DNA of 64,000 nt from Prosthecobacter sp. (lineage in GTDB: Bacteria > Verrucomicrobiota > Verrucomicrobiia > Verrucomicrobiales > Verrucomicrobiaceae), in assembly GCA_019186985.1 (NCBI GenBank), contig JABARQ010000014.1:62001-126000 (forward strand), written 5' to 3'. The position numbers were made by a program, and so were the translations under genes. The notes below the pieces were generated by a model. It was given only the letters and a program-made list of their open reading frames with translations, did not search any database and was not told where the DNA came from. This document shows, one piece after another, positions 1 to 19,529 of the stretch (positions are counted from its first letter, which is position 1; each line of letters starts with the position of its first letter).

Positions 1-3000
1 AACCTTGTCACTGGTTCCGGAGAGGGACGGAGCATCGTTGACCGCGTTGACCGTGATGGTCTCCGTGGCGGTCGCAGCGCTCAGCGAAGCCGTGCCCAGG
101 CCGGTGCTGACAATGTCAATCGCCCTGAACTCAAACTTGCTGCGCCAGTCGGTTCCTGTCACGGCCAGGGCGGAGTTGTAGTTGGCAGGCGGCGCGTAAG
201 TCATGCTGGTCGCCTGGGCCACGGTGATCACGTGCTCGCCGGCGCCGAGTCCCAGATAACTGGCAGGGGCGACCGAACCCGCTGCTGTCAGCGTCTGGTT
301 GTCGCTGGTCTTGAGCGTGCCCACAAGACCGGTGGTCGTCGGACTGTTGTCGGCGTAAATCTTGAGGTAATAATGAGTCACCCGGGCGTCCGTGGTGGAT
401 GAAGTGCCGCTGTCGACGTCGCTGGAGGACAAGGAGAAGGTCACCGTGCTGTCTTCATTCACCGAGGTGGCAAGGTTGGCCACGGCAGGCAGGTCGTTCA
501 CAGGATTCACCGTGATGGCCACCGTCTCCGTGTCGGACTGCGGAGTGTTGTAGGTGCCTGAGTTGCCGTTGTCGTTCACAACCACCGTCAGGGTGTCGGA
601 ACCGAAATAGTTGGCGTTCGGCGCGTAGGTGAGTCCGTTGAGGGCGGCCAGGATGTTCGTCCTGCTGCCGCTGAAGGTGATGGTGCCCGTGCCATTGCCG
701 GAGACTCCGGCCAGGCCGGTGGTGGAGGCCAGCGTGAGACTGCCCCGGGTCACGCTGACGCTGAAGCTGGCGCTTGCGGAGCCAAGGTCGCCGTCGGTGA
801 AGCTCAGGCTTGTGCTGTTCGCTGTCGAGAAGACAAGGCTGCCATCTTCATTGAGGGTTTGCGCACCTGGGACCGCAAGCACCGGACCTTCGTTCATGCC
901 CTCGATGGTCACGGCAAAGGTGTCGGTGTCAGATTTGGCCCCCCCTGAACCAGAATTGCCAAGATCGTCGACGACCATGGTGATGGTGTCGCTGCTTGAA
1001 ACTCCGGAAACCACGCCGGAGGTGTAGGTGGCCGAGGCCAGGGCGGTGTTCAGCGCACCAATCTTGCCCTGAATCACCACGGTGGAGGTTCCGTTTCCGC
1101 TCACCACCAGGGCAGGAGGCAGGTTGAGCACGCCGGCGGTGGCGCTCAGGGTGACACGCAGGGGGCCAAAGTTTGAGTCAACCAGGGTCGTCACTGCATC
1201 CACGCTGTCTGGATCCTGCACAGAAAGGCCAGTGATCGTCGTCGCTGTCTGTTCAACCACTGTCAGTCCGGCCGGCACCACGTTGACCGGCGCGTCATTC
1301 TCGGGCGTGATCGTGATGGCAAAGGTCTGCTGCTCCTCGGCACCGCCGCCGGAGTCGGAGATCTTGGCGTCAAAGCTGTCCGCCGTCGTCTCGCTCCCGT
1401 CATGCGTGTAGGAAAGCTTGTTGGCCTTCAGCTCCGCCAGCGTGATGCGACTGCCAACGCCGAGCACAACACCATCCAGCTTCAGGGATCCATGCTCAGG
1501 AGCGGTGACAAGCCGGAACTGCACCTGCGTGTCCGTGTTGTCTTCATCAGCACCCACAAGGAGAACCGCAGGAGCGCCTGTCCCCACCGTGCCGGGAATA
1601 AGCCCCGTGCCGCCTTCATCGACGGTCAGTCCGACATTGACGGTAAAGCGGGGGTCGTCATTGACCGGGATCACCTTGATCCGGATGCTGGCCTCCACCA
1701 CGGATGCCCCCTGTTCAGGAGGGCCGCGGTAAATTTGTCCTGAGGTGACGGTGGCCACCAGCGTGTCCGCATTGGCCGACTGGGCCGTCAGGCCCCAGTT
1801 CCGCGTGCTGTCCTGCGCAGCCCAGGTCTCACCGCCATCCTTGGAAAGGTAAAGGTTGTCGGCCGCCGTTGCGAGGACGGTCATGCCGTCCTCGGAGATG
1901 CTGACATGACGCCAGGCGCGCTCACGGCCCTCAGGCGTCCAGCTGATGCCCATGTTCGTTGAAACAAACACCTGCTCATCATCCGCCACCGCCACCAGGC
2001 GGCTGCCATCACCGGCGATTGCCACGGACTTCCAGTCACGCTGGCCGGCGGTCACCGCCTCCGTCCATTCGACACCGGCGTTGTCAGTGACATAGACGCT
2101 TCCGTTGGCGGCGCTCGCCACCATTTTGAAACCGTTGCTGGAGACGGAGAGGCTGTTCCATGCCTGGCTGGTGCCCGTGGCGCTCCAGGTGTCGCCTGCA
2201 TCGGTGGAGACATAAATCTGCCCGCCATCAACGGCCGCCGCCATGATGCCGCCGCTTTCACTCATCGCGGCCGCCGTCCAGGACCGCGCCGACTCCTTCG
2301 TGGTCCAGGTCGTGCCTCCGTCCTCACTGAGACGGAGGAGCTCTCCCGTGGCAACGGCCAGAACGGTCGACCCATCTTCATTCAGGGCGACCCCTGTCCA
2401 GCTGACTGCGGGCAGCGAACCGGCAAAGGCACCCCAGGTGGCTCCTGCATCCACGGAGGCACGCAGACCGCCCGAGAATGCGGCGACCAGCAGGTTGCCC
2501 TGGGCGCTTGAGGCAATCGCAGACCAGGCCCGGTTTGTGGCGCCGGCAGACCAGACCGGCGTGGCGGACATGCCGTCATCCACGGTGATGGTCACCAGGT
2601 CGGTCTTGGTTTCAGTGCCGTTGTGCAGGTAGCGCAGACGTCCGGCATCCACATCGGCCTGCGTGAAGGTGTCATTGGCCGCCAGGCTCGTCCAGGTGCC
2701 GGAGACATCCTTTTGCATCACCCCGTTCACCGGCAGCCCGGCTGACTTCAGGCTGTAGGTCAGCGTGTTGGTCGCGGCATAACCGGTGCTCTTGTCACTC
2801 GAAACACCATCCGCATCCGCCGCGGAGAAATTGCCGGTGGCGAGAATCTGCGACAATCCTTCATAGGTCGAGAAGCCGACGGTCAGAACATCCGGGGAAT
2901 CGTTCACCGGAATTGTGTCCAACGTGAAGGCCGCCACGGAGCCGGCAGGCACGGCGGGGTTGGAGCCGTCCTCAACCTGGAAGGTGAAGCTTGAAGAGAA

Positions 3001-6000
3001 CTTCTCTCCGCCATCATGGACGAACTTGACCCGCCCGTTGTTGATGTCGTCCTGGGTGAAGCTGTCATCCGTCTCCAGGATCTGTGCATCCGCCACGCTG
3101 TTGAGCGGCGTGGCATCCAGATACAGCACGCCGTTGTCAGGAAGAGCGTCAAGCACATAGAGAAGCTCGTCCGGCGCCTGCTCCTCATCCTCGGCCTCAA
3201 GCATGGCCTGCGTCAGCGCGAACTCCCTGCCTTCCTTGGGCGCGCCGCCCGTGTTTGTCGCAATGACCGGCGGGTAGTCCACATAAAAGACATACACGGT
3301 CACCGAGCCCGTGGAGGTTCGGCCGCCGCCGTCCTGGATGGTGTAGCTAAAGCTGGTGATGCCATAAAAGCCATGGTCGGGGACGAACTCGACATCGCTG
3401 CCCACCAGGCTGACGCTGCCATTGCCGCCCGTCATCGAAACAGAGGTGATGGTGAGAGGATTCCATCCGCCATCATTGGCGAGCAGGTCCGCCTGCGGCG
3501 TGGTCAGCGTGATGTTCTTGTTGGTGTAAAGAATGTCACCATAGACGCCGACGGCAACGCCTCCGTCACCCACGGTCCCGGTGGTGCCTCCTCCAGGGCT
3601 GCTTCCACCCGCTGGAATCGTGATGTTGACCGTCTTCTCCAGCAGCGTCGTGGTGACCGTGTTGGCGTACACACCGCCAGGGCGGTTGTAGCGGATGTTG
3701 AAGCCCTGGTCTCGCAGCGTCACCTTGAAGTAGTCCGAGGTGGAGCCGTACCCATTGTGCTGATACTTCAACTTGCCCGTATCCACATCGGCCTGTGTGA
3801 ACGTGCCTCCGACACCCAGCGGCTTGTCATTCAAAAGCAGGAAGCCGCTGGCAGGGATGCGGGTGACCCTGTAGAGCAGCTTGGAATCCGCCGAGTCCAC
3901 GTCGTTTCCGTCGAGAATAAGGTCAGGCGTGCCGGCCGGCTCCTTGTTGATCGTGTAAGTGGCGCCCTGCGCGCTAAGCGTGAAATTGCTCACCGTGAGC
4001 GTCGGATCATCGTCCACCTCACGCACCTCCAGGTTGAAGGTGCTTGTCGTTGACTTGGCGTTGGTGCCGACTGGATTGCCACGGTCGGTAATCTTCAACT
4101 TGAAGGAGACGTCCGGCGGATTGACACGGTCGGAGGACGTGTGTGTGATCTTCAGAAGGTTTACCTGGCTGCCGTTGAAGGTGAATCCTGTCGAGTTGAT
4201 GGCGGTGCCGTTGAACTTCAGCACGGCCTCACCGGCGGCCGGCAGCTCGACCACCTCGATGGTCAGGTTTGTATCGTTGGTGTCCTCCGTGTCACTGACG
4301 TCCAGCTGAAGGTCCACGTCCTGCTCAAGCTCCAGCATGGAGTAGGTCTCTGAAACGATGACGGGCGAGAAGTTCCTTGGGATGATCTGAAGGTTCACCT
4401 GAAGCGGCGTGGACGGCGTTCCTCCCGCCGCACCCAGGACGCCACCGGCACCATCTCTCAGGCTGACCGTAAAGCTGTCCGTCCCCACCCCGGCGGACGG
4501 TGTGTAGCTGAAGCTGGCATTGGTCTTGATCTCCGCAAAGTTGAACGTCGAGTTCACGCCCAGATCATTGCCATTCAGCTGCAGGGAGCCGTTGGACGGC
4601 AGGCTTTCAATGCGGAAGACAAGCTGTTCAGCCGTGTTGTCCGGATCCACCACGGTGATGTTGGACGTGCTGAAGATGAGCGTGGTCCCAACCTCCACGG
4701 AGCCCACCAGCGTCACTGGCGGAGTTCCAGGCACCACGTCACCAGGCAGATAGACCAGCGGGGCGTCATTCACCGGGCTCACGGGAATGTCCAGGGAACG
4801 CGTCGCCGTGGTCCCTCCGGCACCGGCTACCTGGTCGGTCACGGTGTAGGCAACCGACTGGGCCACCGTGGGCTCGCCGCCTCCATGCACATAACGAATG
4901 CGGCCGTTGTTGATGTCGGCCTGGGTGAAGGTGTCCGTGGCCGCAAGGTTCGACCAGGTGCCTGAGCCGCTGGTGTCCTTCTGGAGCAGGCCTTCGCTGA
5001 GCACCGTCCCCGAGCTCAGGATGGTGTACACGATTTGGGAGGCGGAAGCCTCCACGTCCGTGATCAGCAGGACTCCAGAGGAGAGAACAACCGTTCCTCC
5101 CTCTGAGACGACATAGTGCTGGTCGTTGACGATCTGAAACACATCGTTCACCCCGTTGACGGTGGTTCCCAGAGTCGTTCCCGTGCTGTCATAATCCGCG
5201 CCGGGACTGCTGACGTTCAATGTCTGACGGCTGGCGGGATTGCTGGTGAATGTCCTGCCGACACTGTTGTCAACGGCGTGAATGGCGAGGCCCGCAGGAG
5301 TGCCATAAAAATTTGCCACCGGGACGAAACGCAGGCGCGCCGTGGAAGGCAGCAGAAGCGCGGAGGCGGCGCTTACCGTGCCGACCCCGTTCCAGCTCGC
5401 ACCGTTGTTCAGGGAGTACTGCCAGGTCCCCTCGGTGGATGAGTTCGCTGCATTGCTACTAACGGCGATGCCCGCCAGGCTGTTGCTGTCAGCATCTGTG
5501 TAGCCCGTCAGCAGGGCCGAAATGACCGCACCCGTCACGGCGACGGGATCCTCGTTGATGGCCGCCAACGTGGCGGTGCCGGTCACCGGGGCATCCGGTA
5601 CGTTGGTGATCGTGATGGTCTGTGTTCCCGTGGCTGTCTTGGCCGGCGGCGTGGCGTTGCCGAGGTCGTCAACAACCAGGGTCAGGGTGTCGGATCCATA
5701 ATAATTGGCCGTCGGCGCATACTTCAACCCGGTCAGGGCGGTGTTGATCGCCGACATGGTTCCGTAAAAGGTCTGGCTGGCAAAGGTGTCAGCCGTGAGC
5801 GCAGCTCCGCCGGAGGCGGCGTCCGTCAGCCCCGTGAGACTCGACAGCGTGACCGAACCATGCAGAACGGACAGGGTGACCTTGACCGTGGCGCTGCCAG
5901 CGTCGCTGTCGGCAACGGAGGGGCTGCCCAGAACGTTGGCAATGCTGTCCTCGGCCACCGTCACCGCCGTCGGCATGGTGGTGGTGGGCGGTTCATTGAA

Positions 6001-7374
6001 GGGTGCCACGGTGATGTTCACGTTGCTGGCGTTGCTTTCCGCACCCGCCGCATCCACCGCCAGGAAGGCAAATGTGTCACTGCCGACATAGTTGGTCGTC
6101 GGCGTGTATTTCATGTTTGTCGCCTGGGCGACGGTAAGGACGTCATTGGCGCTGATCGAGCCATTCGAACTGGTCTTGATCGTGCCGTGGCTGGGAAGTG
6201 ACGTGATCTTGTAGCTCGTGACCAGGGCGTCGATCGTCGTGGAGGTGCCGCTGTCCACCTCCGTGGAGCTCAGCGAAAACGTGGAGGTCGCATTCTTGGT
6301 TGCGCTCAAGGTGATGTCCGACGTGGCCGGCGCATCATTGACCGCCGTCACCGAGGTGGACAGCGACACCGTGGCAAGGGAATAAGCCGTGGTGCCGCCT
6401 GCGGAGGATGCATTGACGACCGTGCCAGAGGTCACCGCACCACCGGAGTTGTCCACCAGCCTGAGACTGAGTGAGGAGGGGGTTCCAAACCAGTTGGCCG
6501 CCGGCATGAACCTCAGTTTGCCTGCACCTGCCACCAGCAGGGCCGAGGAAGCGCTGCGGCCGCCCACGTTGCTCCAGCTGCTGCCGTTGTAGTATTGCCA
6601 CTGTCCCTGCGCCGCATTGACCGTGTAACCAACCACGGCCACACCCGCCAGGGTGTTGGCCGATGATCCACCGCTGACATTGTCGGCGGAGTCGCTGAAG
6701 CTGGCGCTGAACAGGCCGCTCACCTCGGCACCGGCGGGGGCGGCGGCATCTTCATCAACATTTGTCAGGGATGCGGACCCGCTCGCAACAGGCGCATCGT
6801 TCACGGCTGCCACCGTCAGCGGCACGTCGATCGTCACCGTGTTGGACGCTGTCTGGTTTGTCCTGTCCGAGGTGATCCTGATCCTGAACGAGCCGGCGCC
6901 GTTCCAGTTCGCCGCCGGGATGATGCTCAGGGTGTTCAGAAACTGGTTCACGTCCGTGATCTGTCCGTCGACCACGATCGAGGGGGCCGTGACAATGCCG
7001 TTGGTGAGGGCCAGGTTCGCGCCACCGGTGACAATCGAAACCGTGGCCCTCAAAAGGTTGCTCGCTGGCGCTGTCTCGGTGACCGTGAACCGTCCATTCA
7101 AAGTGTAGGTGGAGTCCTCGTTGGTTGTCTGGGAGCCCGGGTTGTTGATCATCGGAGCATCATTGACGCCTGCCCAAGCCATGGGCTGCACCGACATGAT
7201 CACGGCCAGCAGCGATGCCAGAAAAGGAACCGCCGGCCTCGGCGGGCATGGCTCCGGCAGCCGCGCTGCATGCAAGGCAGGGCATGCCGGTTGGGACTGG
7301 TGATGCGTCTCCAGGGCCTTGGTCCGTTCATGGGCGTGGCAGCTGATTTCGCTTTGGGCGTTACTTCTCTTCAT
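1..7374 (-). CDS. giant secreted cadherin/CSPG-repeat adhesin-like protein with embedded beta-propeller (3' end outside window)
   Basis: The frame is open from an ATG at 7374 to the window edge, giving 2458 codons with no stop. After a long polar N-region there is a hydrophobic core (about residues 50-64) and an AWA-type cleavage site. The rest is a chain of about 80-120-residue modules with recurrent 'VNDAP' linkers and CSPG/cadherin-like signatures (FTQADINNGRIRYVH, SLTFDDGDLG-like motifs). At about residues 1610-1880 lie seven repeats of roughly 42 residues, each ending in an Asp-box-like SxDxGxTW motif, which fits a seven-bladed BNR propeller. Such proteins are typically cell-surface adhesins or matrix components, so the role in attachment is inferred. 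The C-terminal anchor or sorting domain is not visible. Two GTTAAC operators lie 12 and 51 bases upstream of the start codon. Confidence 0.9.
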   Translation of the reverse strand, partial: MKRSNAQSEISCHAHERTKALETHHQSQPACPALHAARLPEPCPPRPAVPFLASLLAVIMSVQPMAWAGVNDAPMINNPGSQTTNEDSTYTLNGRFTVTETAPASNLLRATVSIVTGGANLALTNGIVTAPSIVVDGQITDVNQFLNTLSIIPAANWNGAGSFRIRITSDRTNQTASNTVTIDVPLTVAAVNDAPVASGSASLTNVDEDAAAPAGAEVSGLFSASFSDSADNVSGGSSANTLAGVAVVGYTVNAAQGQWQYYNGSSWSNVGGRSASSALLVAGAGKLRFMPAANWFGTPSSLSLRLVDNSGGAVTSGTVVNASSAGGTTAYSLATVSLSTSVTAVNDAPATSDITLSATKNATSTFSLSSTEVDSGTSTTIDALVTSYKITSLPSHGTIKTSSNGSISANDVLTVAQATNMKYTPTTNYVGSDTFAFLAVDAAGAESNASNVNITVAPFNEPPTTTMPTAVTVAEDSIANVLGSPSVADSDAGSATVKVTLSVLHGSVTLSSLTGLTDAASGGAALTADTFASQTFYGTMSAINTALTGLKYAPTANYYGSDTLTLVVDDLGNATPPAKTATGTQTITITNVPDAPVTGTATLAAINEDPVAVTGAVISALLTGYTDADSNSLAGIAVSSNAANSSTEGTWQYSLNNGASWNGVGTVSAASALLLPSTARLRFVPVANFYGTPAGLAIHAVDNSVGRTFTSNPASRQTLNVSSPGADYDSTGTTLGTTVNGVNDVFQIVNDQHYVVSEGGTVVLSSGVLLITDVEASASQIVYTILSSGTVLSEGLLQKDTSGSGTWSNLAATDTFTQADINNGRIRYVHGGGEPTVAQSVAYTVTDQVAGAGGTTATRSLDIPVSPVNDAPLVYLPGDVVPGTPPVTLVGSVEVGTTLIFSTSNITVVDPDNTAEQLVFRIESLPSNGSLQLNGNDLGVNSTFNFAEIKTNASFSYTPSAGVGTDSFTVSLRDGAGGVLGAAGGTPSTPLQVNLQIIPRNFSPVIVSETYSMLELEQDVDLQLDVSDTEDTNDTNLTIEVVELPAAGEAVLKFNGTAINSTGFTFNGSQVNLLKITHTSSDRVNPPDVSFKLKITDRGNPVGTNAKSTTSTFNLEVREVDDDPTLTVSNFTLSAQGATYTINKEPAGTPDLILDGNDVDSADSKLLYRVTRIPASGFLLLNDKPLGVGGTFTQADVDTGKLKYQHNGYGSTSDYFKVTLRDQGFNIRYNRPGGVYANTVTTTLLEKTVNITIPAGGSSPGGGTTGTVGDGGVAVGVYGDILYTNKNITLTTPQADLLANDGGWNPLTITSVSMTGGNGSVSLVGSDVEFVPDHGFYGITSFSYTIQDGGGRTSTGSVTVYVFYVDYPPVIATNTGGAPKEGREFALTQAMLEAEDEEQAPDELLYVLDALPDNGVLYLDATPLNSVADAQILETDDSFTQDDINNGRVKFVHDGGEKFSSSFTFQVEDGSNPAVPAGSVAAFTLDTIPVNDSPDVLTVGFSTYEGLSQILATGNFSAADADGVSSDKSTGYAATNTLTYSLKSAGLPVNGVMQKDVSGTWTSLAANDTFTQADVDAGRLRYLHNGTETKTDLVTITVDDGMSATPVWSAGATNRAWSAIASSAQGNLLVAAFSGGLRASVDAGATWGAFAGSLPAVSWTGVALNEDGSTVLAVATGELLRLSEDGGTTWTTKESARSWTAAAMSESGGIMAAAVDGGQIYVSTDAGDTWSATGTSQAWNSLSVSSNGFKMVASAANGSVYVTDNAGVEWTEAVTAGQRDWKSVAIAGDGSRLVAVADDEQVFVSTNMGISWTPEGRERAWRHVSISEDGMTVLATAADNLYLSKDGGETWAAQDSTRNWGLTAQSANADTLVATVTSGQIYRGPPEQGASVVEASIRIKVIPVNDDPRFTVNVGLTVDEGGTGLIPGTVGTGAPAVLLVGADEDNTDTQVQFRLVTAPEHGSLKLDGVVLGVGSRITLAELKANKLSYTHDGSETTADSFDAKISDSGGGAEEQQTFAITITPENDAPVNVVPAGLTVVEQTATTITGLSVQDPDSVDAVTTLVDSNFGPLRVTLSATAGVLNLPPALVVSGNGTSTVVIQGKIGALNTALASATYTSGVVSGVSSSDTITMVVDDLGNSGSGGAKSDTDTFAVTIEGMNEGPVLAVPGAQTLNEDGSLVFSTANSTSLSFTDGDLGSASASFSVSVTRGSLTLASTTGLAGVSGNGTGTITFSGSRTNILAALNGLTYAPNANYFGSDTLTVVVNDNGNSGTYNTPQSDTETVAITVNPVNDLPAVANLATSVNEDSTVTFSLSSSDVDSGTSSTTDARVTHYYLKIYADNSPTTTGLVGTLKTSDNQTLTAAGSVAPASYLGLGAGEHVITVAQATSMTYAPPANYNSALAVTGTDWRSKFEFRAIDIVSTGLGTASLSAATATETITVNAVNDAPSLSGTSDKV

Positions 7375-7512
7375 AACGTCCGTGTGTTAACCCTGTTCCG
7401 CCCCATCTGCGGCCACTTACATGAGTTAACCCAAAAGCTGTGCGCACTTCAGAAATGAGTTACCTCATCTGCATGGTTATCATGCTGGCATGCAGCGGTT
7501 AACAGCGTCCGT
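7375..7512. promoter_or_regulatory. divergent control region with three GTTAAC sites
   Basis: This gap separates the giant repeat protein (minus) from the C40-type peptidase (plus). GTTAAC occurs at 7386-7391 (TGTGTTAACCCTG), 7425-7430 (GAGTTAACCCAAA) and 7498-7503 (GCGGTTAACAGC). A related near-palindrome, ATGAGTTACCTCAT, lies at 7455-7468. The first site is only 12 bases from the adhesin start codon and the third is 9 bases from the peptidase start, so a bound protein could block either transcription or translation start. The regulator is inferred, not identified. Confidence 0.6.
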
Positions 7513-8163
7513 GTGCATGGCACTCGCTTAACCATTTTTGCACTGACAAGCTTCGCGCTGTCCGGGATGGACTGTCTCCACGCGCAGCCATCTTGGCATT
7601 CCTTGGCTGCGGATCCCTGGAGCGCCTACGCTAAGCAGCTTGCTGAATACCATGAAAAGCTTCGTGACTATCATGTCCAGCTCGCCGCCTGGAGGGCCCG
7701 GCATGCGGGCCCTGGCTTCAGCCCACAGAGCCCGTCCACACCCAAGGCGCTTCCGTTGATCAGCCTTGTGCACGGCCAGGCGGCCTGCTCAAGACTGGTC
7801 CCCGTGCAGGTCATGTACGCGGTCAACGCGGCCAACCATCTGCAGACAAGCCCCTATGTGCTGGGAGCGGGCCATCGTCGCATCGAGGACTTTGCATATG
7901 ACTGCTCCAGCGCCGCCTCCTATGTGCTGGTCAAGGCGGGTCTTCTCGACAGAACGCTTACCTCCCAGCAGTTCGCTGAATTTGGTGAACCGGGCGTGGG
8001 AAGATTTATCACGCTCTGGGTGAAACCCGGCCACCATGTGTTCATGACCCTTTGCGGCCTCAGGCTGGACACCAGCGGCGGCGCAACCGCCCAGGGGCCG
8101 CGGTGGCGGACTCAGGGCCGCAGCCATGACGGATTCTTGCCCCGTCATCCCCCCGGCTTTTGA
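7513..8163 (+). CDS. secreted NlpC/P60 (C40)-like cysteine peptidase
   Basis: The 216-residue protein starts with a probable signal peptide (residues 1-25), then has a helical stretch rich in K, E, Y and H (about 35-65), then a C40-type core. The catalytic cysteine is C131 in the YDCSSAASYVL motif, and GHHVFM (H174/H175) carries the likely catalytic histidine. The C-terminal GPRW...GFLPRHPPGF pattern is a recognised ending of one NlpC/P60 subgroup. Members cleave peptidoglycan stem peptides in the envelope. The gene is divergent from the giant surface protein, and wall remodelling during its export is a plausible inference. A GTTAAC site lies 9 bases upstream of the ATG. I see no strong ribosome-binding site. 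Confidence 0.75.
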   Translation: MHGTRLTIFALTSFALSGMDCLHAQPSWHSLAADPWSAYAKQLAEYHEKLRDYHVQLAAWRARHAGPGFSPQSPSTPKALPLISLVHGQAACSRLVPVQVMYAVNAANHLQTSPYVLGAGHRRIEDFAYDCSSAASYVLVKAGLLDRTLTSQQFAEFGEPGVGRFITLWVKPGHHVFMTLCGLRLDTSGGATAQGPRWRTQGRSHDGFLPRHPPGF

Positions 8164-8195
8164 GGCCGAACAAGGAAGTCCGGTGAAGCCTGCGC

Positions 8196-8579
8196 TTAGT
8201 TAGCAGCATCCGATACCCGCAGAAGTTCCACACAGGAGGGCACGCGCAGGCTGCTCAGGCTGCAGCACTCGACCCGCACCCGCAGGTTCTCACAAAACTG
8301 TACTGAGTCGCCATCATAGAGCAGCCGCGTCCGGATCGAATCTCCTCCCATCCACAAGCGATGATCTGCAGAGACATCCACGACCCGTAGTTCATTGCCA
8401 CTGTTCACCGCCTGAAACTCAGCATGAAAGGCGGCAATGGACGGCTCATTGAAAACGACATCATTCAACGGATGCCTGCCGACGCTGATGGAAAGACGGT
8501 CGATGGGGATGACACTTTCGGCGCCCGACCGCCATCGAAAACGAAGCCTGTAGGTTTCCTTGGATGAGATGACATCCAC
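8196..8579 (-). CDS. small FHA-domain protein (degenerate phosphothreonine loop)
   Basis: About 127 residues when started at the GTG at 8579, which has AGGGG seven bases upstream. An in-frame ATG at 8639 would add 20 residues but has no ribosome-binding site and adds sequence before the first FHA strand. The FHA core begins with ISVGRHPLNDVVFNEPSIAAFHAEF (quoted here in parts: VGRH, ND, S..FH). The usual SSNGT segment is replaced by ADHRLWMGG, so the conserved Asn that contacts the phosphopeptide is not evident. It may therefore act as a protein-interaction domain without classic phosphothreonine binding. It resembles the FHA protein at 19116-19529 in size and layout, and both lie at the borders of the NO-sensing block. 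No Ser/Thr kinase gene is in the window. Confidence 0.75.
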   Translation of the reverse strand: MDVISSKETYRLRFRWRSGAESVIPIDRLSISVGRHPLNDVVFNEPSIAAFHAEFQAVNSGNELRVVDVSADHRLWMGGDSIRTRLLYDGDSVQFCENLRVRVECCSLSSLRVPSCVELLRVSDAAN

Positions 8580-9022
8580 ACATCTGCCCCTATTCGGTGC
8601 TTGTCTTGATTGAAAGGCGGCGGGTGTTGTTGCGAGCATCAGAATGTCTGGAAAATGCAGAATTAATTTCCTGTCGATTTGCTCTAATTTATGCAGATCA
8701 TTGCGGCGAAGTCCCCGATTCAGATGTGTTAACCCTTCCAGAATCGCGATGCGGGCTTGGCATTCCTCATCATGATACTTTTTAAAAGAGGCGACCCTTT
8801 ATCGTGAATAGCTCCAGCGATCTTGAAGCGCAGAGACAAACTTTTATCAGTGCCATCTGCTATCAGCCGTTCATATTATCGAGTTAACCCGTCTAAAGTT
8901 TTGAAAAAATACGAAATATTTTAAAAAATAAAAGGGTCACGACTAACTGACTAGTTATGGCAAACCTGACCAACTAAAATTCAGGGGTCAGAAAACATCC
9001 TCAATCCAGCACCCAAACTGCC
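8580..9022. promoter_or_regulatory. AT-rich intergenic region with two GTTAAC sites
   Basis: The region is much more AT-rich than its surroundings, especially 8860-8960, which has runs of A and T. GTTAAC sites lie at 8728-8733 (TGTGTTAACCCTTCC) and 8883-8888 (GAGTTAACCCGTC). The latter matches, on the opposite strand, the 13 bases around 19626. It probably holds promoters for the FHA gene on the minus strand and, if that gene is real, the small gene at 9023. No hairpin terminator was seen. Confidence 0.5.
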
Positions 9023-9232: not shown

Positions 9233-9259
9233 TCAAGCCACTGCATCGAAGCCGCCTGT

Positions 9260-11491
<2,232 letters not shown>

Positions 11492-12694
11492 CTATTCACA
11501 GCCCTCACCGCGGTACAACGCGTAGATGGCGGTCGTGTAGTTATGGTAGGTGTTGGCTCCGCCGAGGCGGGCAAACTCGCCAAATCCATACATGCCAAGC
11601 CAGGCCGGAACCACGCCTCCCACGCTCAGGGGAAACTGCATCCTTCCCACCAGCTCCTCCTTCATGACCCGGTTGAACAGGTAGCGACCGCGTGCCAGGC
11701 AGTCGGCATGGAAGACAGCCACGGGCATGCGCCCTGACGACCGGGCGGTCATCTGCTGCATCATCCGTTCGAGGTCCTTGAAGATCCGCTCTTCATCCCT
11801 GATGGTCAGCCAGAGTCGGCTCCCTTCGCAAACCTCCGTCGCGTAGTGCATCGTGCCATCCACCTCACGGCGGGTCACCACTCGCAGGATGTGGGGGTTG
11901 CCATACTCTTCCGCTAGCTCCTGAGGCAGCTCCTCCGCCAGAGCCCCGATGGGAATCGAGTCGCCGCAGGTGGCCGTTTCGGGGTCGAGCCCCAGCCGGG
12001 CCGCATACTCCTCCCAGGCGGGCCTGCCGTTGAGTTCGATGATCCGGGAACCCTCCGCCTTTGTCACGATCATTGGCTCTCCAACCGCCAGGAAGCCATG
12101 CGTCGCCTGGGTGTCCACCTCCAGGCTGGAGTCCGCGTATCCGACCGCCCAGGCGGCATGTTCAAAGACCTGGTCGTCCACCATCTGGTAGCTTGTGACC
12201 CCCTTCATGTTGTCGGATGAAGTCGCGCCAAAGATCGTCACGTCAGGGCCCAGCACCGCCTCCAGGCCTGCGATGCAGCGATCATTGGCGATGTCGATGC
12301 CCGAGGCCAGGAAATGCACCATGCTGATGTTCTCCTGCTGTGCCTTCAGCTGTCGCGCGAGCTCCATGGATTTTTCAAACGAGTTGCGGCCGTTGATGCC
12401 GTCCACATGCGCCACCGCGAACTCACTGCCCTTCACCGCCATGATCGCCAGATCCTTCATGGATTCACTGACGCCTTCGGTGCCGACAATGCCGCAGCAG
12501 GATGCGCCCAGAACCCTGGCTCCCGGCATCAGCCGGCGGGCTTCATCCAGCATGGCGTGATAGTCATGCCCGATGGAGGCGTGCAGCAGAACGAGGTCGC
12601 ACTGAGTTCCGGGCCCGAGCGCCGCCTCCAGGCATTCCTGGACGGCATGACGGGTGTTGACCATTCGTGTGCTCGCTGAGTGAAACTGTAGCAT
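11492..12694 (-). CDS. FIST-domain sensor (NosP-like, candidate NO sensor)
   Basis: The 400-residue protein contains FIST_N (about residues 25-230, with GASCCGIVG) and FIST_C (about 235-390, with FHADCLARG and FGEFARLGG motifs). FIST proteins are cytoplasmic sensors. A subset (NosP) binds heme and NO and controls a co-encoded histidine kinase. Here the stop codon abuts the kinase start, which supports the same partnership. Heme binding cannot be read from the sequence with certainty. Divergent from it is an H-NOX gene, the other main bacterial NO sensor, which strengthens the NO assignment. A GTTAAC operator lies about 77 bases upstream of the ATG and a GTTACCTCA variant about 28 bases upstream. 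Confidence 0.85.
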   Translation of the reverse strand: MLQFHSASTRMVNTRHAVQECLEAALGPGTQCDLVLLHASIGHDYHAMLDEARRLMPGARVLGASCCGIVGTEGVSESMKDLAIMAVKGSEFAVAHVDGINGRNSFEKSMELARQLKAQQENISMVHFLASGIDIANDRCIAGLEAVLGPDVTIFGATSSDNMKGVTSYQMVDDQVFEHAAWAVGYADSSLEVDTQATHGFLAVGEPMIVTKAEGSRIIELNGRPAWEEYAARLGLDPETATCGDSIPIGALAEELPQELAEEYGNPHILRVVTRREVDGTMHYATEVCEGSRLWLTIRDEERIFKDLERMMQQMTARSSGRMPVAVFHADCLARGRYLFNRVMKEELVGRMQFPLSVGGVVPAWLGMYGFGEFARLGGANTYHNYTTAIYALYRGEGCE

Positions 12695-12856
12695 GGAAGA
12701 TGCTTTGAATAGTGTAGAAGGGTTACCTCAACATTAGGCCGCCTCCGGAGTGCAGGTATGAACCATTTGGGTTAACCCATTTTAACCGCTGTGATTTCTT
12801 GCAGGGCCGGCGGCAAACGGGTTAACCTACCTTTAAAGAAGCACTACCCCAGGATC
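12695..12856. promoter_or_regulatory. divergent NO-sensor control region with two GTTAAC sites
   Basis: This region lies between the FIST gene (minus) and the H-NOX gene (plus). GTTAAC sites are at 12771-12776 (ATTTGGGTTAACCCATTTT) and 12821-12826 (ACGGGTTAACCTACC), 50 bases apart, with a related GTTACCTCA at 12722-12730 and TTTTAACC at 12779-12786. The 12771 site shares ATTTGGGTTAACCCA with the core of the 38-bp palindrome at 19061. The second site would be coding if H-NOX were started at the upstream frame opening (12791); starting at 12857 keeps it intergenic. Confidence 0.6.
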
Positions 12857-13423
12857 ATGTACGGAATGGTGAACAGAGCAGTCCAGGAACTCATCACGCA
12901 TGAGTTCGGGGAGTCCCGATGGCTGCAGATCCGGCAAATGGCCGGGGTGGAGGATGAAATCTTCGTTTCTACTGAACCCTACCCGGATGAAATCACCTAC
13001 CGGCTGGTTGCCGCCGCCTCCGAAGTGCTCGGACTCCCGTCCGCGCGGATTCTTGAACAGCTAGGCCGCTGGTGGGTGCTCCAGACGGCTCAGCAGGGGT
13101 ATGGTCATCTCATGAAGGCCGCCGGACGTACCCTAGCGGACTTCCTGGTCAACCTGCCGAACTTTCACACCAGGATCGAGATGATGTATCCGGGCCTGAG
13201 ACCACCCGAGTTTGAATGCACCGACATTCTGCCGGGCAGCCTCAAGCTGCACTACCGGAGTCATCGTAAGGGGCTCGCCCCCTTCGTCACCGGACTGCTG
13301 CAGGGCCTGGGTGAAATGTTCGCAACCGCCATCCAAATCAGCGCCGAAGAGGTGGATGAAGGAGGAGACGCGCACCATGTCTTCCACGTCTCCTGGAAAA
13401 CCCCGCCCGAACATGCCCTTTGA
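12857..13423 (+). CDS. H-NOX heme nitric-oxide sensor
   Basis: This is a 188-residue H-NOX (HNOB) protein starting with the canonical MYGMVN. The open frame extends 22 codons further upstream, but those residues are not part of the family and would contain an operator site. The proximal heme ligand is H104 in LPNFHTRI, the propionate-binding YxSxR motif is Y133-S135-R137 in LHYRSHRKGL, and a P-rich YPGLRPPEF lies between. No Tyr is visible at the distal-pocket position (about 140-144, LAPFV), which in this family fits an NO-selective, O2-excluding pocket. The last 11 bases overlap the kinase gene that follows, the usual arrangement for H-NOX and its effector kinase. Confidence 0.95.
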   Translation: MYGMVNRAVQELITHEFGESRWLQIRQMAGVEDEIFVSTEPYPDEITYRLVAAASEVLGLPSARILEQLGRWWVLQTAQQGYGHLMKAAGRTLADFLVNLPNFHTRIEMMYPGLRPPEFECTDILPGSLKLHYRSHRKGLAPFVTGLLQGLGEMFATAIQISAEEVDEGGDAHHVFHVSWKTPPEHAL

Positions 13424-16400
13424 GCAGCAGCCCGTGATCAGCCTGGGAAGGCTTGAGGAGGCGTTCCCATTCCTTCTGGCCTGGGATCAAAATTCCACGA
13501 TCATCCGGGTGGGAAGGTCCCTGCAGCGAACCTGCGGCACAGAACTCCGCGGACGTCACTTGGGCGATTTTTTCAGCCTGGTAAGGCCGACGGGACGAAT
13601 GGATGCAGCATGGCTGGGCAGCCATCCCGGCACGCTGATGCTTGTTCGTTATGAAGGCAGCGGCATGATTCTGCGCGGCCAGGTGCTGGCACCTGATGAA
13701 CCCGCCTGCGGGGTGTTCATGGGCGCCCCCTGGGTCAGCTCTCCTGGCGATCTCGACCGGCTGGGCCTCAATCTGGCGGACTTTGCGCCTCATGATGCCG
13801 CCCAGGACCTTCTTCATGTGGTCCAGGCCCAGCGCATCGCGAACCACGAGCTGCTCGAAATGAACGCCAGGCTGAAGGAAAACCAGGCCAGGCTGCAGGA
13901 AAAGGAGGCAGAGGCCAGGAAGCTCGCGCTTGTGGCGGAACGCACGGACAACGCGGTGATCCTTGCCAGCATCGACGGGAAGATCGAATGGGTGAACGCC
14001 GCCTTTGAAAGAATGACCGGCTGGTCGCTGGCCGAGGTGAAGGGCCTCAAGCCCGGTTCGTTTCTCCAGGGACCACGGACGGACGGGGCCGCCGTCGAGC
14101 GCATGCGCGCAGGCCTGCTCAGCAAGGAGGGCTTTCGCACGGAGATCCTGAATTATCGCAAGGATGGAAGCCCCTACTGGGTGGACATCGAAGTCCAGGC
14201 GATTGCGGACAAGGATGGAAAGGTGCAGAAGTTCATGGCGCTTGAGGCTGACATCTCGGATAAAAAGCACCAGGAGATGAGACGCCGGCTGGAAACGGCC
14301 TCCGCCCGGGTTCTGGCGACTGCCAGCAGGCCGGCGGATGTCATCCCAACCCTTCTCGCCAACATCGCCACGGAACTGGAATGGCCGCATGCGGCCTGGT
14401 GGCAGGTGGATGACTCCGGTGACTGCCTGATCCTAGCGGACGCCTGGCATGACTCACGTTTAACCCACCAAGCGGCCACCCGTGCCGGGTGGAGTGTGAG
14501 GCTGAAAAAGGGGCAGGGGCTTCCTGGTCGCGCCTGGGCGGAAGGAAGCCCCGTGTGGGCGGGCGAAGCTGAGGTCGCGGACCATCTGCCCAGGCTGGGC
14601 GGAAGGACGGAAGTTCCTGCACTTTGCGGGCTGGGATTCCCGGTTTCAGTGCGGGGAGTCTTTCGCGGTGTGCTGGAGTTCTACAGCATTCACCTTGATC
14701 CGCCGGATGATGACCTGCTCCAGACGCTTCAGCACATCTCGGCACAAACCGGGCTCCTGCTTGAACGGCTCGATGCCGAGGACGCCCTTCGCCGGAGCCA
14801 GCAGGCCATGAAGACCGGTCAGCGGATCGCCGGGCTTGGTAACTGGAGCTACAACACAAGGACGGGCAAGATTGAATGGTCGGATGAAAAGTTCCGCATC
14901 TACGGTCACGAACCCGGCAGCGTGAAGGTTGACCTGGATTTCTGCCGCAAGGCCATTCACCCGGAGGATGTCTCCAAGGTGATGGACGCCATCCAGCATT
15001 CCGTTGAAACAGGAGAGGCGATGCAGATGACGTATCGGATCGTCCGGCCTGACGGGGAGACACGACACCTGCGAACCCGTGCTGAAATGCTGCCTGCGGC
15101 CGAAGGCATGTCAGAACTGCTCATGGGAACCGTGCTCGACATCACCGAAGTCGTGGCCGTCCAGCAGGAGCTTCACCAGATGGAGGAACGCTGGCAGTTC
15201 GCCCTGCAGAACAACGGGCTGGGCGTCTGGGACTGGAACGTGCAGTCGGGATCCGTGCTATATACGGACCGTCTTCAGCAGATGCTTGGATACGAGGCCG
15301 GGGAATGGCAGCAGCATGTGGACAGCTGGAGTTCCCGTGTTCACCCGGAAGACCTGCCGGCTGTGATGGACGCCATGAACCGCTGCCTTGCCGGGGAGAC
15401 GCATGACTACATCTGCGAACACCGGCTTCGCTGCAAGGATGGTTCCTGGAAATGGGTCCAGGACGTGGGACGCATCGTGTCATTTTCCAAGGACGGCAGG
15501 CCGCTGCGGATGATTGGAACGCAAATGGACATCCACATCCGGAAGGAGGCCCAGGAAACGACCCGCAGGCGCGCCAATCTTCTCAACCGGATCCGGACCG
15601 CTCAGGAGCGGTACATCGCGGCAACCGACCCCGTGCCCGTCTTTGCCGAAATGCTGGACATCATCGTGCAGCATACGCGAAGCGAGTTTGGATTCATCGG
15701 TGAAGTGCTCCGCGACAGCAGCGGCAGCCCCTTCCTTCAATCCTACGCCGTTTCCGACATCTCCTGGGATGAACCCTCCCGGACCCTCTTCCAATCCATG
15801 GGGCCTGCCGGGCTTGTTTTTCGCAATCTCAACACGCTTTTCGGCCGGGCGATGGTCACCGAGGAGGTGTTGATCTCCAACGATGCCGCCGCCGACCCAC
15901 GTTCCGGAGGGCTTCCACCAGGGCACCCGCCGCTGAAGTCGTTCCTGGGTCTTCCTGTACATCATGGCCTCGAAATGGTCGGCCTCGTCGGCCTCGCCAA
16001 CCGCGAGGGCGGTTATGACACGGACATGCTCAAGGAGCTTGACCCCTTCCTGGCGGCCATGAGCAGCATGATCGTGGCGCGCCGTGAAGCCCGCAGACGC
16101 CAGCAGATCGAAGAGGAGCTGCGCCAGGCCAAGGACAAGGCGGAAGCCGCCAGCCATGCCAAAAGCGAGTTCCTGGCCACCATCAGCCATGAGATCCGCA
16201 CGCCAATGAACGGCATTCTCGGCATGGCCCGTCTTCTTCGCTCCGGAGGTCTGGATGACCGGCAGACGGAAATGGCGGACTCCATTCTTCAAAGCGGTTC
16301 GGCGCTGGTCAGCATCATCGACGACATCCTGGACTTTGCCAAGATCGAGGCGGGACAGATCGAGCTTTGTGAGCAGCCTTTTGACCCTGACGAAGTTGTC

Positions 16401-18002
16401 GGAGGCGTGGTGGAGCTTCTTGCCCATGAGGCGGCGGCCAAGGGCATTGAGCTGTCAGCAGTTCTGGATCCCTCCATTCCTGACCTTCTCGTAGGCGATG
16501 CCGGCCGCATACGCCAGGTGCTGCTCAACCTGGCCGGCAATGCCTTGAAATTCACCCTGGAAGGGCATGTGACCATCCATGTCAATGCATCGTCCGGCGC
16601 CATTGAGTTCCGGGTCACGGACACCGGCATTGGCATGTCCCCATCAGACCTTGACCGGCTGTTCAAGCCGTTCACCCAGCTGGACAGCTCCCACTCCCGG
16701 CGTTTCGGAGGCACCGGCCTGGGCCTGGCGATCTGCAAGAAGCTTGTGGACCGGATGGAGGGTGAGATCAGCGTGCAGAGCGAACCTGGGAAGGGGTCGC
16801 AGTTCTGGTTCCGGCTGCCGCTCCAAATAGCCGCTGCTAAGCCCGCAGGCCGTGGCTCACCTCACATGCAACTGCGCCTGTGGGTGGCCGAAGCCTCTCC
16901 TCAAATCCAGAAGCAGATCTGTCAGAGCCTGGAGCGCCAGGGGCATGTCCTGACCGTGTTCCGCAGCCCTGATGCCCTGATGGAGCGACTTCTTTCCGGC
17001 ACCGCCGAGGCTGATGTGCTGATCATCAGCGCATCCTGGCTTCTTGACGGACTCCAGGAAGCGGCCGGACATTGGCTGAAAACCCCGGCCACACCCGCAA
17101 GAAGGGTGCTGGTCATGGCGTGCAGTCACGATGAATCCCCTCGTCTGGCTGATTGGGAGGTTCTGCGGCTCCCTCTTCGCAGACGGCGCATCAGGGAAGC
17201 CGTGCTCAGTCCCGTCACAGCCGAATCCACGAGGTCCTCCCAGGACGATTGCGTCCGGGCAGATCTGGGGCTTCATGTGCTGGTGGTGGAGGATAATTCC
17301 GTCAATGCACGCCTGGCCAGGCTGCTGCTGGAAGGCCTTGGCTGCACATCCCACCTCGCCGTGAACGGAGCGGAGGCGGTCGCCGCCTTCCGCCGTGAGC
17401 ATTACGATGCCATTTTGATGGACTGTCAGATGCCCGTCATGGACGGATATGAAGCAACCCGGCAGATTCGCGAGATCGAATCCCGACGGACTGCTCCCAT
17501 CCCGCCTTGCCAGATCATTGCCATGACCGCCAACGCCCTTCAGGAGGAGCGCCATCGCAGCCTGCAGGCGGGCATGAACGCCCATTTGTCCAAGCCCTTC
17601 AACACTTCCGAACTAGCCTCCCTGCTGGCACGCACGGCCGCGAGCTTGGTTCCTGCATTACCGGCCCGGCACGAAGGCTTCGAGCTTCTGGCCGGTCAGG
17701 TGGGCCAAGAAGCTGCGTCAGAAATCGCCAGGATCTGGATCGAGGAGGCGCCGGAAAGGCTGAGGCTTATCAGGACTGCCATGATGGAAGGCGATGCCGC
17801 CCTGGTGAGGAAGCAGGGCCACGCACTGCGAGGATCCAGTGTCGTGTTCGGACTTGAATCCGTGATTGATGCCTGCCTGGCGCTTGAACGCCAGGAACAG
17901 GCTGCCAGCGACCAGAGGCTGCTGGCAGCGCTGGAAAAGGCGGTCAGCCAGGCGTCACTGATTCTCAAGGCCGACATCGACTGCCAGGGCCTGCAAAGCT
18001 GA
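13413..18002 (+). CDS. giant HNOBA-PAS-GAF hybrid histidine kinase with two receiver-like domains and Hpt
   Basis: 1529 residues from the ATG at 13413, inside the end of the H-NOX gene. The longer frame from 13212 would lie over H-NOX codons and is rejected. Order: HNOBA/H-NOXA domain (about 10-140), coiled coil (140-175), PAS (170-285), GAF (295-450), PAS_3 (470-580), PAS_3 (590-710), GAF (720-890), HisKA with H926, HATPase_c (NLAGNALKFT, DTGIGM, GTGLGLAI), a receiver-like domain without phospho-acceptor Asp (1150-1265; ADVLIISAS), a true receiver with D1337 (MDCQMP), and Hpt with H1470 (HALRGSS). No membrane segments. HNOBA is the domain that pairs with H-NOX in soluble guanylate cyclases, so NO state is probably read directly through H-NOX/HNOBA contact. 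Confidence 0.93.
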   Translation: MPFEQQPVISLGRLEEAFPFLLAWDQNSTIIRVGRSLQRTCGTELRGRHLGDFFSLVRPTGRMDAAWLGSHPGTLMLVRYEGSGMILRGQVLAPDEPACGVFMGAPWVSSPGDLDRLGLNLADFAPHDAAQDLLHVVQAQRIANHELLEMNARLKENQARLQEKEAEARKLALVAERTDNAVILASIDGKIEWVNAAFERMTGWSLAEVKGLKPGSFLQGPRTDGAAVERMRAGLLSKEGFRTEILNYRKDGSPYWVDIEVQAIADKDGKVQKFMALEADISDKKHQEMRRRLETASARVLATASRPADVIPTLLANIATELEWPHAAWWQVDDSGDCLILADAWHDSRLTHQAATRAGWSVRLKKGQGLPGRAWAEGSPVWAGEAEVADHLPRLGGRTEVPALCGLGFPVSVRGVFRGVLEFYSIHLDPPDDDLLQTLQHISAQTGLLLERLDAEDALRRSQQAMKTGQRIAGLGNWSYNTRTGKIEWSDEKFRIYGHEPGSVKVDLDFCRKAIHPEDVSKVMDAIQHSVETGEAMQMTYRIVRPDGETRHLRTRAEMLPAAEGMSELLMGTVLDITEVVAVQQELHQMEERWQFALQNNGLGVWDWNVQSGSVLYTDRLQQMLGYEAGEWQQHVDSWSSRVHPEDLPAVMDAMNRCLAGETHDYICEHRLRCKDGSWKWVQDVGRIVSFSKDGRPLRMIGTQMDIHIRKEAQETTRRRANLLNRIRTAQERYIAATDPVPVFAEMLDIIVQHTRSEFGFIGEVLRDSSGSPFLQSYAVSDISWDEPSRTLFQSMGPAGLVFRNLNTLFGRAMVTEEVLISNDAAADPRSGGLPPGHPPLKSFLGLPVHHGLEMVGLVGLANREGGYDTDMLKELDPFLAAMSSMIVARREARRRQQIEEELRQAKDKAEAASHAKSEFLATISHEIRTPMNGILGMARLLRSGGLDDRQTEMADSILQSGSALVSIIDDILDFAKIEAGQIELCEQPFDPDEVVGGVVELLAHEAAAKGIELSAVLDPSIPDLLVGDAGRIRQVLLNLAGNALKFTLEGHVTIHVNASSGAIEFRVTDTGIGMSPSDLDRLFKPFTQLDSSHSRRFGGTGLGLAICKKLVDRMEGEISVQSEPGKGSQFWFRLPLQIAAAKPAGRGSPHMQLRLWVAEASPQIQKQICQSLERQGHVLTVFRSPDALMERLLSGTAEADVLIISASWLLDGLQEAAGHWLKTPATPARRVLVMACSHDESPRLADWEVLRLPLRRRRIREAVLSPVTAESTRSSQDDCVRADLGLHVLVVEDNSVNARLARLLLEGLGCTSHLAVNGAEAVAAFRREHYDAILMDCQMPVMDGYEATRQIREIESRRTAPIPPCQIIAMTANALQEERHRSLQAGMNAHLSKPFNTSELASLLARTAASLVPALPARHEGFELLAGQVGQEAASEIARIWIEEAPERLRLIRTAMMEGDAALVRKQGHALRGSSVVFGLESVIDACLALERQEQAASDQRLLAALEKAVSQASLILKADIDCQGLQS

Positions 18003-18070
18003 ATAAAGCGTCCTGGATGCAGGCTGAGGAACGAGCACCGTTTCAGAAAAGCCGAAGGCGGCTAAGGCAG

Positions 18071-18745
18071 TCAGCCGTTCCTGCTTTTTGCCAGCAAGGC
18101 CACGGCCGCTGTTTTGGAGCCCACATGAAGCTTCTGGTAGATCTTCTTCAGATGAACCCTCACCGTTTCATGACTCAGCCCCAGGCTTGCCGCCACATCC
18201 TTGGCGTTTCCAAGCTGTTGAACTTGTTGAAGAACCTCCCGTTCACGTTCGGTGAGTTTTTCCAATGAACTGACCTGGGGTTCGGTCGGAGCCGCCGCCT
18301 CGGCCTTGAGAAAGGCATCCACCACCAGCCGGGCGACAGACGGGCTGAACGTCATGCCATCCTTGACGGCATCCTGAAGGTTCTGCAGCAACAGTTCCGC
18401 CCTGGCTTCCTTCACAAGGTAGCCAGAAGCACCCGCCCTGATGGCCTGGAACACGTTTTCGGGATTGCTGGAGGCTGTCAGCACAATGCACGCGGTCTCC
18501 GGCTGCTCGGCACGCATCCGCCTGATGACGTCGATGCCGCTGTCCCCAGGCAGTTCCAGGTCCACCAGAAGCCATCCCAGACCCTGGTGACGCCGATCGG
18601 CAAAGAACGCTTCGGCGCTTTCCCAGGCATCGACGGATTCAAGCTCCTCCTGCCTGCTTAACAAGGCCTTCAAGTAGGCTCTCATCACCGGATCATCTTC
18701 AATCAGGCCGGCTCGTATGGGGCGGGGGGAGGTGCTCATGGTCAT
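18071..18745 (-). CDS. NarL/FixJ-family response regulator
   Basis: 224 residues: a receiver domain (about 10-125) with acidic pair E16-D17-D18, phospho-acceptor D62 in LLVDLELPG, T and K switch residues (VLTASS, GYLVKEA), and a LuxR-type helix-turn-helix at about 160-222 (LTEREREVLQQV...NAKDVAASLGLSHETVRVHLKKIYQKL, in parts). It converges with the giant H-NOX-linked kinase, 68 bases from its stop. It is the only DNA-binding response regulator in the block and hence the best candidate for the output of both NO kinases and for binding the palindromic GGGTTAACCC sites; that is inference. Two ATGs (M1 and M3) are possible starts. Confidence 0.93.
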   Translation of the reverse strand: MTMSTSPRPIRAGLIEDDPVMRAYLKALLSRQEELESVDAWESAEAFFADRRHQGLGWLLVDLELPGDSGIDVIRRMRAEQPETACIVLTASSNPENVFQAIRAGASGYLVKEARAELLLQNLQDAVKDGMTFSPSVARLVVDAFLKAEAAAPTEPQVSSLEKLTEREREVLQQVQQLGNAKDVAASLGLSHETVRVHLKKIYQKLHVGSKTAAVALLAKSRNG

Positions 18746-19060: not shown

Positions 19061-19098
19061 TCACCCCTTCATTTGGGTTAACCCAAATGAAGGGGTGA
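19061..19098. repeat. perfect 38-bp palindrome centred on GTTAAC
   Basis: The left arm TCACCCCTTCATTTGGGTT is followed directly by its exact reverse complement AACCCAAATGAAGGGGTGA, with no mismatch and no spacer. GTTAAC is at 19077-19082. It starts 17 bases beyond the stop codon of the FHA gene on the minus strand. It could fold into a long hairpin, but there is no T-run on either side as in intrinsic terminators. The inner 18 bases, ATTTGGGTTAACCCAAAT, are the most symmetrical version of the motif repeated in the other gaps of this block, so a protein-binding site is the preferred reading. Confidence 0.85.
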
Positions 19099-19115
19099 CG
19101 CATCTCACGACGGTC

Positions 19116-19529
19116 TCATGAGACTCCGGCATCCTTTCTGACAAACAAGGACCTGACGCTCTTGGCAAGCTCCCTGAGCAAGGCCGTGTCAGGCCGAACG
19201 AACCCTTCACTTTCATCGTCCTCAAGGACAAGCACCTCGACGAGGCGGGCAATGGAACGGACATCCCCGTGGGCGAGCCTCTCCCTGCACACCTGCCTGC
19301 CGTTCAACCAGGTGCCGTTGCTGGAGCCCGCGTCCAGGACAACCAGTCCATCCTCCTCCAAACAGAACTTGGCATGGTGCGCCGAGACCGCCGGGTCCTC
19401 GATGACGATGTCATTATCCTCGTGTCTTCCAACCGTCAGGACCCGTCCGTCGAAGTTCACGCACAGGCTCGAACGTGTGTTGGGTTGAAACACCAGCTGA
19501 TACATGTCTGTCTCTGCTCCGGAGGACAC
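19116..19529 (-). CDS. small FHA-domain protein
   Basis: The 137-residue protein is almost entirely one FHA domain (about residues 9-110). It has all the hallmark residues: VGRHEDNDIVI (Arg), DPAVSAHHAKF (Ser and His) and DAGSSNGTWLNG (Asn), so phosphothreonine-peptide binding is expected. A short acidic and then basic tail follows. It is probably cytoplasmic and acts as an adaptor. No Ser/Thr kinase or secretion-system gene is near, so its phosphorylated partner is unknown. Two GTTAAC sites lie 47 and 97 bases upstream, which groups it with the NO-sensor genes under the same putative regulator. Confidence 0.88.
   Translation of the reverse strand: MSSGAETDMYQLVFQPNTRSSLCVNFDGRVLTVGRHEDNDIVIEDPAVSAHHAKFCLEEDGLVVLDAGSSNGTWLNGRQVCRERLAHGDVRSIARLVEVLVLEDDESEGFVRPDTALLRELAKSVRSLFVRKDAGVS

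What the first reader, a model, noticed from the sequence alone, without database searches (positions are those of the whole stretch)
1..8163. NO signalling possibly tied to a giant adhesin and a wall peptidase
The adhesin and C40-like peptidase are divergent from one gap that carries three of the GTTAAC sites, one only 12 bases before the adhesin start. H-NOX and NosP control biofilm formation in several proteobacteria, so the block may be a complete sense-and-attach system with its own effector genes.
Basis: inference. Interest (0 to 1): 0.65.

Follow-up and report, generated by a model that had tools for sequence, protein, structure and literature searches.

The report
Nitric-oxide regulon with wall-enzyme gene
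In a freshwater Prosthecobacter-type bacterium, genes for two predicted nitric-oxide sensors, a response regulator, a cell-wall peptidase and a giant surface protein share a repeated DNA control site; comparison with related species supports the sensors, the regulator and the peptidase as one gas-controlled gene set, while the giant surface protein looks like a species-specific addition.

Summary
GTTAAC occurs 10 times in the window, only between 7386 and 19631 and always between genes (12857 taken as the H-NOX start). The whole genome has 87, so 0.18 are expected there. The site is a conserved operator, TGGGTTAACCCA. It lies upstream of 16/16 H-NOX genes of the window's clade and 12/12 NosP-like genes in the genus, although NosP sits away from hnox in other species. 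Genomes carrying the sensors also carry the block's NarL/LuxR-type response regulator (16 with both, 27 with neither, 5 with one).

The peptidase link is supported. Six copies in H-NOX/NosP genomes carry the box, in at least three lineages; 0 of 42 copies in genomes without the system do. The protein is a divergent NlpC/P60 enzyme.

The adhesin link is weaker. This ~4,500-residue cadherin-repeat protein has no N-terminal counterpart in 47 other genomes of the genus, and other species have a helix-turn-helix gene in its place. Boxes lie 12 and 51 bases from its start, and another giant protein with the same C-terminal domain also has a box upstream.

Verdict: real NO regulon, new variant of a known kind; sense-and-attach partly supported; direction of control unknown.

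The parts
1..7374 (-). Giant secreted cadherin-like/tandem-95 repeat protein ('adhesin'), 5' 2,458 codons; continues off the window to about 4,526 aa in all, followed by a SOUL heme-binding gene
   Evidence: Pfam Cadherin_3 273 bits, Cadherin_4, Big_9; NCBIfam tand_rpt_95; remainder read in L028; SOUL
7386..7391 (.). Box 1 of the divergent gap, TGTGTTAACCCT, 12 bases from the adhesin ATG, 127 from the peptidase GTG
7425..7430 (.). Box 2, TGAGTTAACCCA, the strong one (22.5 bits); 51 bases from adhesin ATG, 88 from peptidase GTG
7459..7464 (.). Variant box TGAGTTACCTCA (13.4 bits)
7498..7503 (.). GTTAAC without flanking arms; below 8 bits, probably not a functional box
7513..8163 (+). Exported NlpC/P60-like (C40-type) peptidase; conserved Cys131 and His175
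   Evidence: profile to LytE E=6.7e-6; AlphaFold model pLDDT 91.6; Foldseek to NlpC/P60 autolysin, probability 1.00; invariant residues
8196..8639 (-). FHA-domain protein 1, boxes at 8728 and 8883 upstream
   Evidence: Pfam FHA 35.5 bits; box scores 17.6 and 14.1
9260..11491 (-). PAS hybrid histidine kinase, same strand directly after the NosP-like gene
   Evidence: Pfam
11492..12694 (-). FIST-domain NosP-like NO sensor
   Evidence: Pfam FIST 111 bits and FIST_C; NCBIfam NosP 57 bits, below its cut-off of 450
12722..12826 (.). Three evenly spaced boxes (12722 variant, 12771 perfect, 12821) between NosP and H-NOX, 49-50 bp apart
12857..13423 (+). H-NOX (start by comparison with relatives)
   Evidence: Pfam HNOB 171.7 bits; relatives start at MYGMVN
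13413..18002 (+). HNOBA-PAS-GAF hybrid histidine kinase with receiver and Hpt domains
   Evidence: Pfam
18071..18745 (-). NarL/LuxR-type response regulator, proposed binder of the box
   Evidence: Pfam Response_reg and GerE; co-occurrence with the sensors
19061..19098 (.). Perfect 38-bp palindrome with a perfect box (19077) at its centre, upstream of the response regulator and just after FHA2
19116..19529 (-). FHA-domain protein 2, boxes at 19576 and 19626 (50 bp apart) upstream
   Evidence: Pfam FHA 64 bits

Best explanation
The block is the main locus of a nitric-oxide regulon of Prosthecobacter. H-NOX and a NosP-like FIST protein sense NO and control their hybrid kinases; phosphate passes through receiver and Hpt domains to the NarL/LuxR-type response regulator; that regulator binds the palindrome TGGGTTAACCCA, often two copies 44-50 bp apart. 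It controls the sensors' own genes, its own gene, the NlpC/P60 wall peptidase and, in this species, probably the divergent giant adhesin and the FHA genes. Shown by sequence: the conserved operator, its gene set, and co-occurrence with the regulator. Inferred: that this regulator is the binder, that NO is the signal, the direction of control, and that the adhesin responds.
For: 10 sites in 12.2 kb against 0.18 expected. Box upstream of 16/16 clade-I hnox and 1/12 clade-II; the exception, G051, carries this regulator 5 kb away. 12/12 NosP-like genes boxed, usually at about -115 and -71, although NosP is away from hnox in other species. Regulator clade in 19 of 48 genomes, H-NOX-I/NosP/boxed hnox in 18, 16 shared. 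About 13 of 29 regulator genes of the clade have a box upstream of the gene or operon; regulators scoring under 150 bits have no consensus box. Peptidase: 6 boxed genes, all in H-NOX/NosP genomes, 0 of 42 elsewhere, at least 4 changes of the label on the tree. Best armed non-block sites in this genome precede a pilin-like gene (19.3 bits) and a 3,614-aa protein sharing the adhesin's C-terminal domain (17.9 bits).
Against: No binding or expression data. Two genomes with sensors lack the regulator (G006, 74% complete; G055, 95% complete), and three with the regulator lack the sensors. Related species are not independent samples, so the P values overstate. The adhesin has no orthologue in the genus and its own-genome paralogue has no box. 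No clear sigma-70-like promoter was found in the gap.
Confidence: 0.72

Rival explanations
1. The regulon is real and includes the peptidase, but the adhesin is a bystander: the boxes in the gap serve only the peptidase promoter.
For: In G002 and G003 the boxes lie in the peptidase/HTH_17 gap without any adhesin. The window boxes at -88 and -127 from the peptidase start fall near the positions seen at NosP promoters. The adhesin is species-specific and its paralogue is unboxed.
Against: A box only 12 bases from the adhesin ATG; a second giant protein with the same C-terminal domain also has a box upstream.
Confidence: 0.4
2. The box is bound by another regulator (for example the small HTH_17 protein, or an unlinked factor), and the response regulator is merely another target.
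For: HTH_17 genes sit beside boxed peptidase genes in G002 and G003, and behind a box near hnox in G050; G006 and G055 have boxes without the response regulator clade.
Against: No HTH_17 gene is seen in the window block; the response regulator tracks the sensors far more widely and G014 keeps the regulator with boxes but no hnox.
Confidence: 0.22
3. The GTTAAC cluster is a compositional or mobile-repeat effect with no regulatory meaning.
For: The hexamer is palindromic and intergenic DNA is richer in A+T.
Against: Genome-wide scarcity, conserved spacing and position upstream of orthologues in other species with unlike flanks, absence from nearly all clade-II hnox promoters.
Confidence: 0.02

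Closest known systems
Shewanella oneidensis hno network (H-NOX/HnoK/HnoB/HnoC/HnoD)
   Same: H-NOX plus kinase, and a response-regulator transcription factor that feeds back on the network's own genes (HnoC, as summarised in PMC8738867)
   Different: Other phylum; two heme sensor types share one operator; the targets include a wall peptidase; no c-di-GMP enzyme was found among the block proteins scanned; HnoC sequence not compared here
NosP/NosK/NosR of Burkholderia pseudomallei and NosP systems of Vibrio and Legionella (PMC12570481, PMC8738867)
   Same: FIST sensor encoded beside a histidine kinase
   Different: Those outputs are an HD-GYP protein, other c-di-GMP proteins or quorum-sensing relays; here the only separate regulator in the block is DNA-binding
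NlpC/P60 (C40) peptidoglycan endopeptidases such as LytE, CwlO, MepS
   Same: Fold, conserved Cys and His, export signal
   Different: Divergent family below Pfam thresholds; found mostly in Verrucomicrobiaceae with a few actinobacterial (Patulibacter) hits
Cadherin-like/tandem-95 giant surface proteins
   Same: Repeat types and exported N-terminus
   Different: No retention or RTX module recognised; shares a C-terminal domain with several other proteins of the same genome

Membership tests
H-NOX two-component NO signalling | HNOB domain with proximal His and YxSxR motif | tested here: met
   Pfam HNOB 171.7 bits; PNFH...YP and YRSHR read in the translation
H-NOX two-component NO signalling | Adjacent kinase with HNOBA domain | tested here: met
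   HNOBA 69.7 bits, HisKA, HATPase, receiver, Hpt
H-NOX two-component NO signalling | NO binding and NO-dependent kinase control | not testable with these tools
   needs purified protein
NosP | FIST N and C domains, encoded with a histidine kinase | tested here: met
NosP | Score above the NCBIfam NosP equivalog cut-off (450) | tested here: not met
   57.1 bits; so described as NosP-like
NlpC/P60 (C40) | Sequence profile match | tested here: met
   Window protein alone: no Pfam hit. Family profile: LytE 6.7e-6, CwlO 0.0015
NlpC/P60 (C40) | Papain-like NlpC fold | tested here: met
   Foldseek to 7cfl E=5.9e-4, probability 1.00, TM 0.59-0.68
NlpC/P60 (C40) | Catalytic Cys-His plus third polar residue | tested here: inconclusive
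   Cys and His invariant in 37 sequences; the third residue was not assigned
HnoC-type regulator | Response regulator that controls the H-NOX network genes | tested here: inconclusive
   Co-occurrence and operator evidence only; no homology test to HnoC
Large biofilm adhesin (LapA type) | Retention module, RTX and LapD/LapG control | tested here: not met
   None among Pfam or NCBIfam hits of the N-terminal 2,457 aa; the C-terminal half was read by eye only

The most novel reading that the evidence does not exclude
A NO-controlled wall-remodelling and attachment regulon in Verrucomicrobiota: two different heme NO sensors converge on one DNA-binding regulator, NlpC/P60 peptidases were recruited to it at least three separate times, and this species added giant adhesins (two loci) and a pilin-like gene. 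A sister H-NOX clade uses a different C-rich operator, so sensor and operator have diverged together.
Probability: 0.4. Interest if true: 0.72.

Novelty: new variant of a known kind. Interest (0 to 1): 0.56.

Why it matters
H-NOX and NosP were worked out in proteobacteria, mostly through c-di-GMP. Here comparison alone predicts an operator and gene set for a NO regulon in a phylum for which no such study was found in the library searched. It names testable targets and ties NO sensing to peptidoglycan hydrolysis, a link not mentioned in the H-NOX review read here.

Tried and rejected
Chance or repeat origin of GTTAAC: rejected by genome count and conservation. 7498 as a box: rejected by score. 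Adhesin orthologues in the genus: none found. Box at the adhesin's C5 paralogue: none. FHA orthologues in relatives' loci: none at E 1e-6. Whole-genome motif totals as an indicator of the system: too noisy, controls are similar. Clade-II C-rich palindrome near clade-II regulators: not found with the pattern used. A sigma-70 promoter in the gap: none.

Full report
Observation. The window is part of a 5.88-Mb genome of the Prosthecobacter group (genus relatives named; mostly MAGs, several titled from lakes and ponds). The adhesin (start 7374, minus) and the peptidase-like gene (start 7513, plus) diverge from a 138-bp gap with GTTAAC at 7386, 7425 and 7498. All ten GTTAAC of the window lie in 7386-19631 and between genes once H-NOX is started at 12857, as in its relatives. 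The genome has 87 in all, so the cluster is far beyond chance (P about 9e-15).

Genes. Pfam gives FHA, PAS hybrid kinase, FIST (NosP-like), HNOB (H-NOX), an HNOBA-PAS-GAF hybrid kinase with Hpt, a NarL/LuxR-type response regulator and a second FHA protein. The adhesin has cadherin-like and tandem-95 repeats, runs off the window to about 4,526 aa and is followed by a SOUL heme-binding gene.

The operator. I searched the hnox gene in the genus (48 genomes) and read the promoters. All 16 genes of the window's H-NOX clade (58% identity or more) have GTTAAC within 195 bp upstream, 15 of them with a GGG or CCC arm (window gene); of 12 genes of the second clade one has it (one of the other 11 has a run of N there). 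That one (G051) carries the window's response regulator 5 kb away. The clade-II promoters mostly show another, C-rich palindrome. All 12 NosP-like genes of the genus have the box, mostly as a pair at about -115 and -71, in genomes where NosP is away from hnox. The consensus is TGGGTTAACCCA.

The regulator. Close relatives of the window's response regulator (bit score 165 or more) occur in 19 of 48 genomes; H-NOX clade I, NosP or a boxed hnox occur in 18; 16 have both and 27 neither (Fisher 5e-8, not corrected for relatedness). About 13 of the 29 regulator genes of this clade have a box upstream of the gene or operon, while regulators scoring under 150 bits have no consensus box (one has an unrelated GTTAAC). 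G014 has no hnox yet keeps the regulator with boxes and an orphan Hpt-like gene beside it. This makes the regulator the likeliest binder, by inference.

The peptidase. The family has up to 4 copies per genome in the genus. Only six of 67 genes carry an armed box, all in genomes with the NO system: G000, G002, G003, G006 (on a different contig from hnox), G023 and G049. On a tree the boxed copies need at least four changes of label and fall in at least three places, so NO control was probably gained repeatedly. The family profile matches LytE and CwlO, the model (pLDDT 91.6) matches NlpC/P60 structures, and Cys131 and His175 are invariant.

The adhesin. Its N-terminal 325 residues match nothing orthologous in 47 other genomes of the genus; a paralogue in the same genome has no box. 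In G002 and G003 the gene divergent from the boxed peptidase is a small HTH_17 protein, in G023 a ParA-like protein. So the adhesin is a local addition. In its favour: boxes 12 and 51 bases from its ATG, and, of the sites with a GGG or CCC arm outside the block and its flank, the second-best lies upstream of a 3,614-aa protein that shares its C-terminal domain, the best upstream of a pilin-like gene. Roughly 0.01 such coincidences would be expected for the 16 places with that domain (my estimate from about 14 sites, 250 bp each, 5.87 Mb), but it was noticed after the fact.

Mechanism. NO binds H-NOX and NosP, changes kinase activity, and the phosphorelay sets the state of the response regulator at paired boxes. 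This follows the established H-NOX/NosP literature (PMC8738867, PMC12570481) and the HnoC feedback precedent cited there; none of it was tested here. Whether NO turns the peptidase and adhesin on or off cannot be told from sequence.

Verdict. The reading 'NO signalling tied to a wall peptidase' is well supported; 'tied to the adhesin' is plausible (about 0.55); 'complete sense-and-attach system' is not shown.

Noticed in passing
L036-L039, L182-L187 (clade-II hnox promoters): The second H-NOX clade lacks the GTTAAC box and mostly has a C-rich palindrome such as TATCCCCCCAATTGAGGGATA about 70-85 bp upstream; a sister response regulator at about 40% identity often lies on the same contig.
   Followed up: partly
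window 19061-19098: Perfect 38-bp palindrome TCACCCCTTCATTTGGGTTAACCCAAATGAAGGGGTGA between FHA2 and the response regulator; its arms resemble the clade-II palindrome (TCCCCCCTCATTTGGGGGGA in L187).
   Followed up: partly
G000:C18:104485 (L176:6488): Best armed box outside the block, just upstream of a short type IV pilin-like gene.
   Followed up: partly
G000:C32 (L354:4467-15311): 3,614-aa RCC1/cadherin/Calx-beta protein with a box upstream and the same C-terminal domain as the window adhesin; 16 places in the genome carry that domain.
   Followed up: partly
L162:14856: In G023 a box precedes a gene with a di-haem cytochrome c peroxidase (MauG) domain.
   Followed up: no
window 20676-22497: Glutamyl-tRNA reductase (heme synthesis) and a cytochrome c assembly-like gene lie next to the NO block.
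   Followed up: no
window 7377 and 7506: 10-bp direct repeat CGTCCGTGTG at both ends of the divergent gap, next to both start codons; these are its only two + strand copies in the window.
   Followed up: no
window 9023-9232: Possible unlisted 69-aa gene (+) downstream of box 8883.
   Followed up: no
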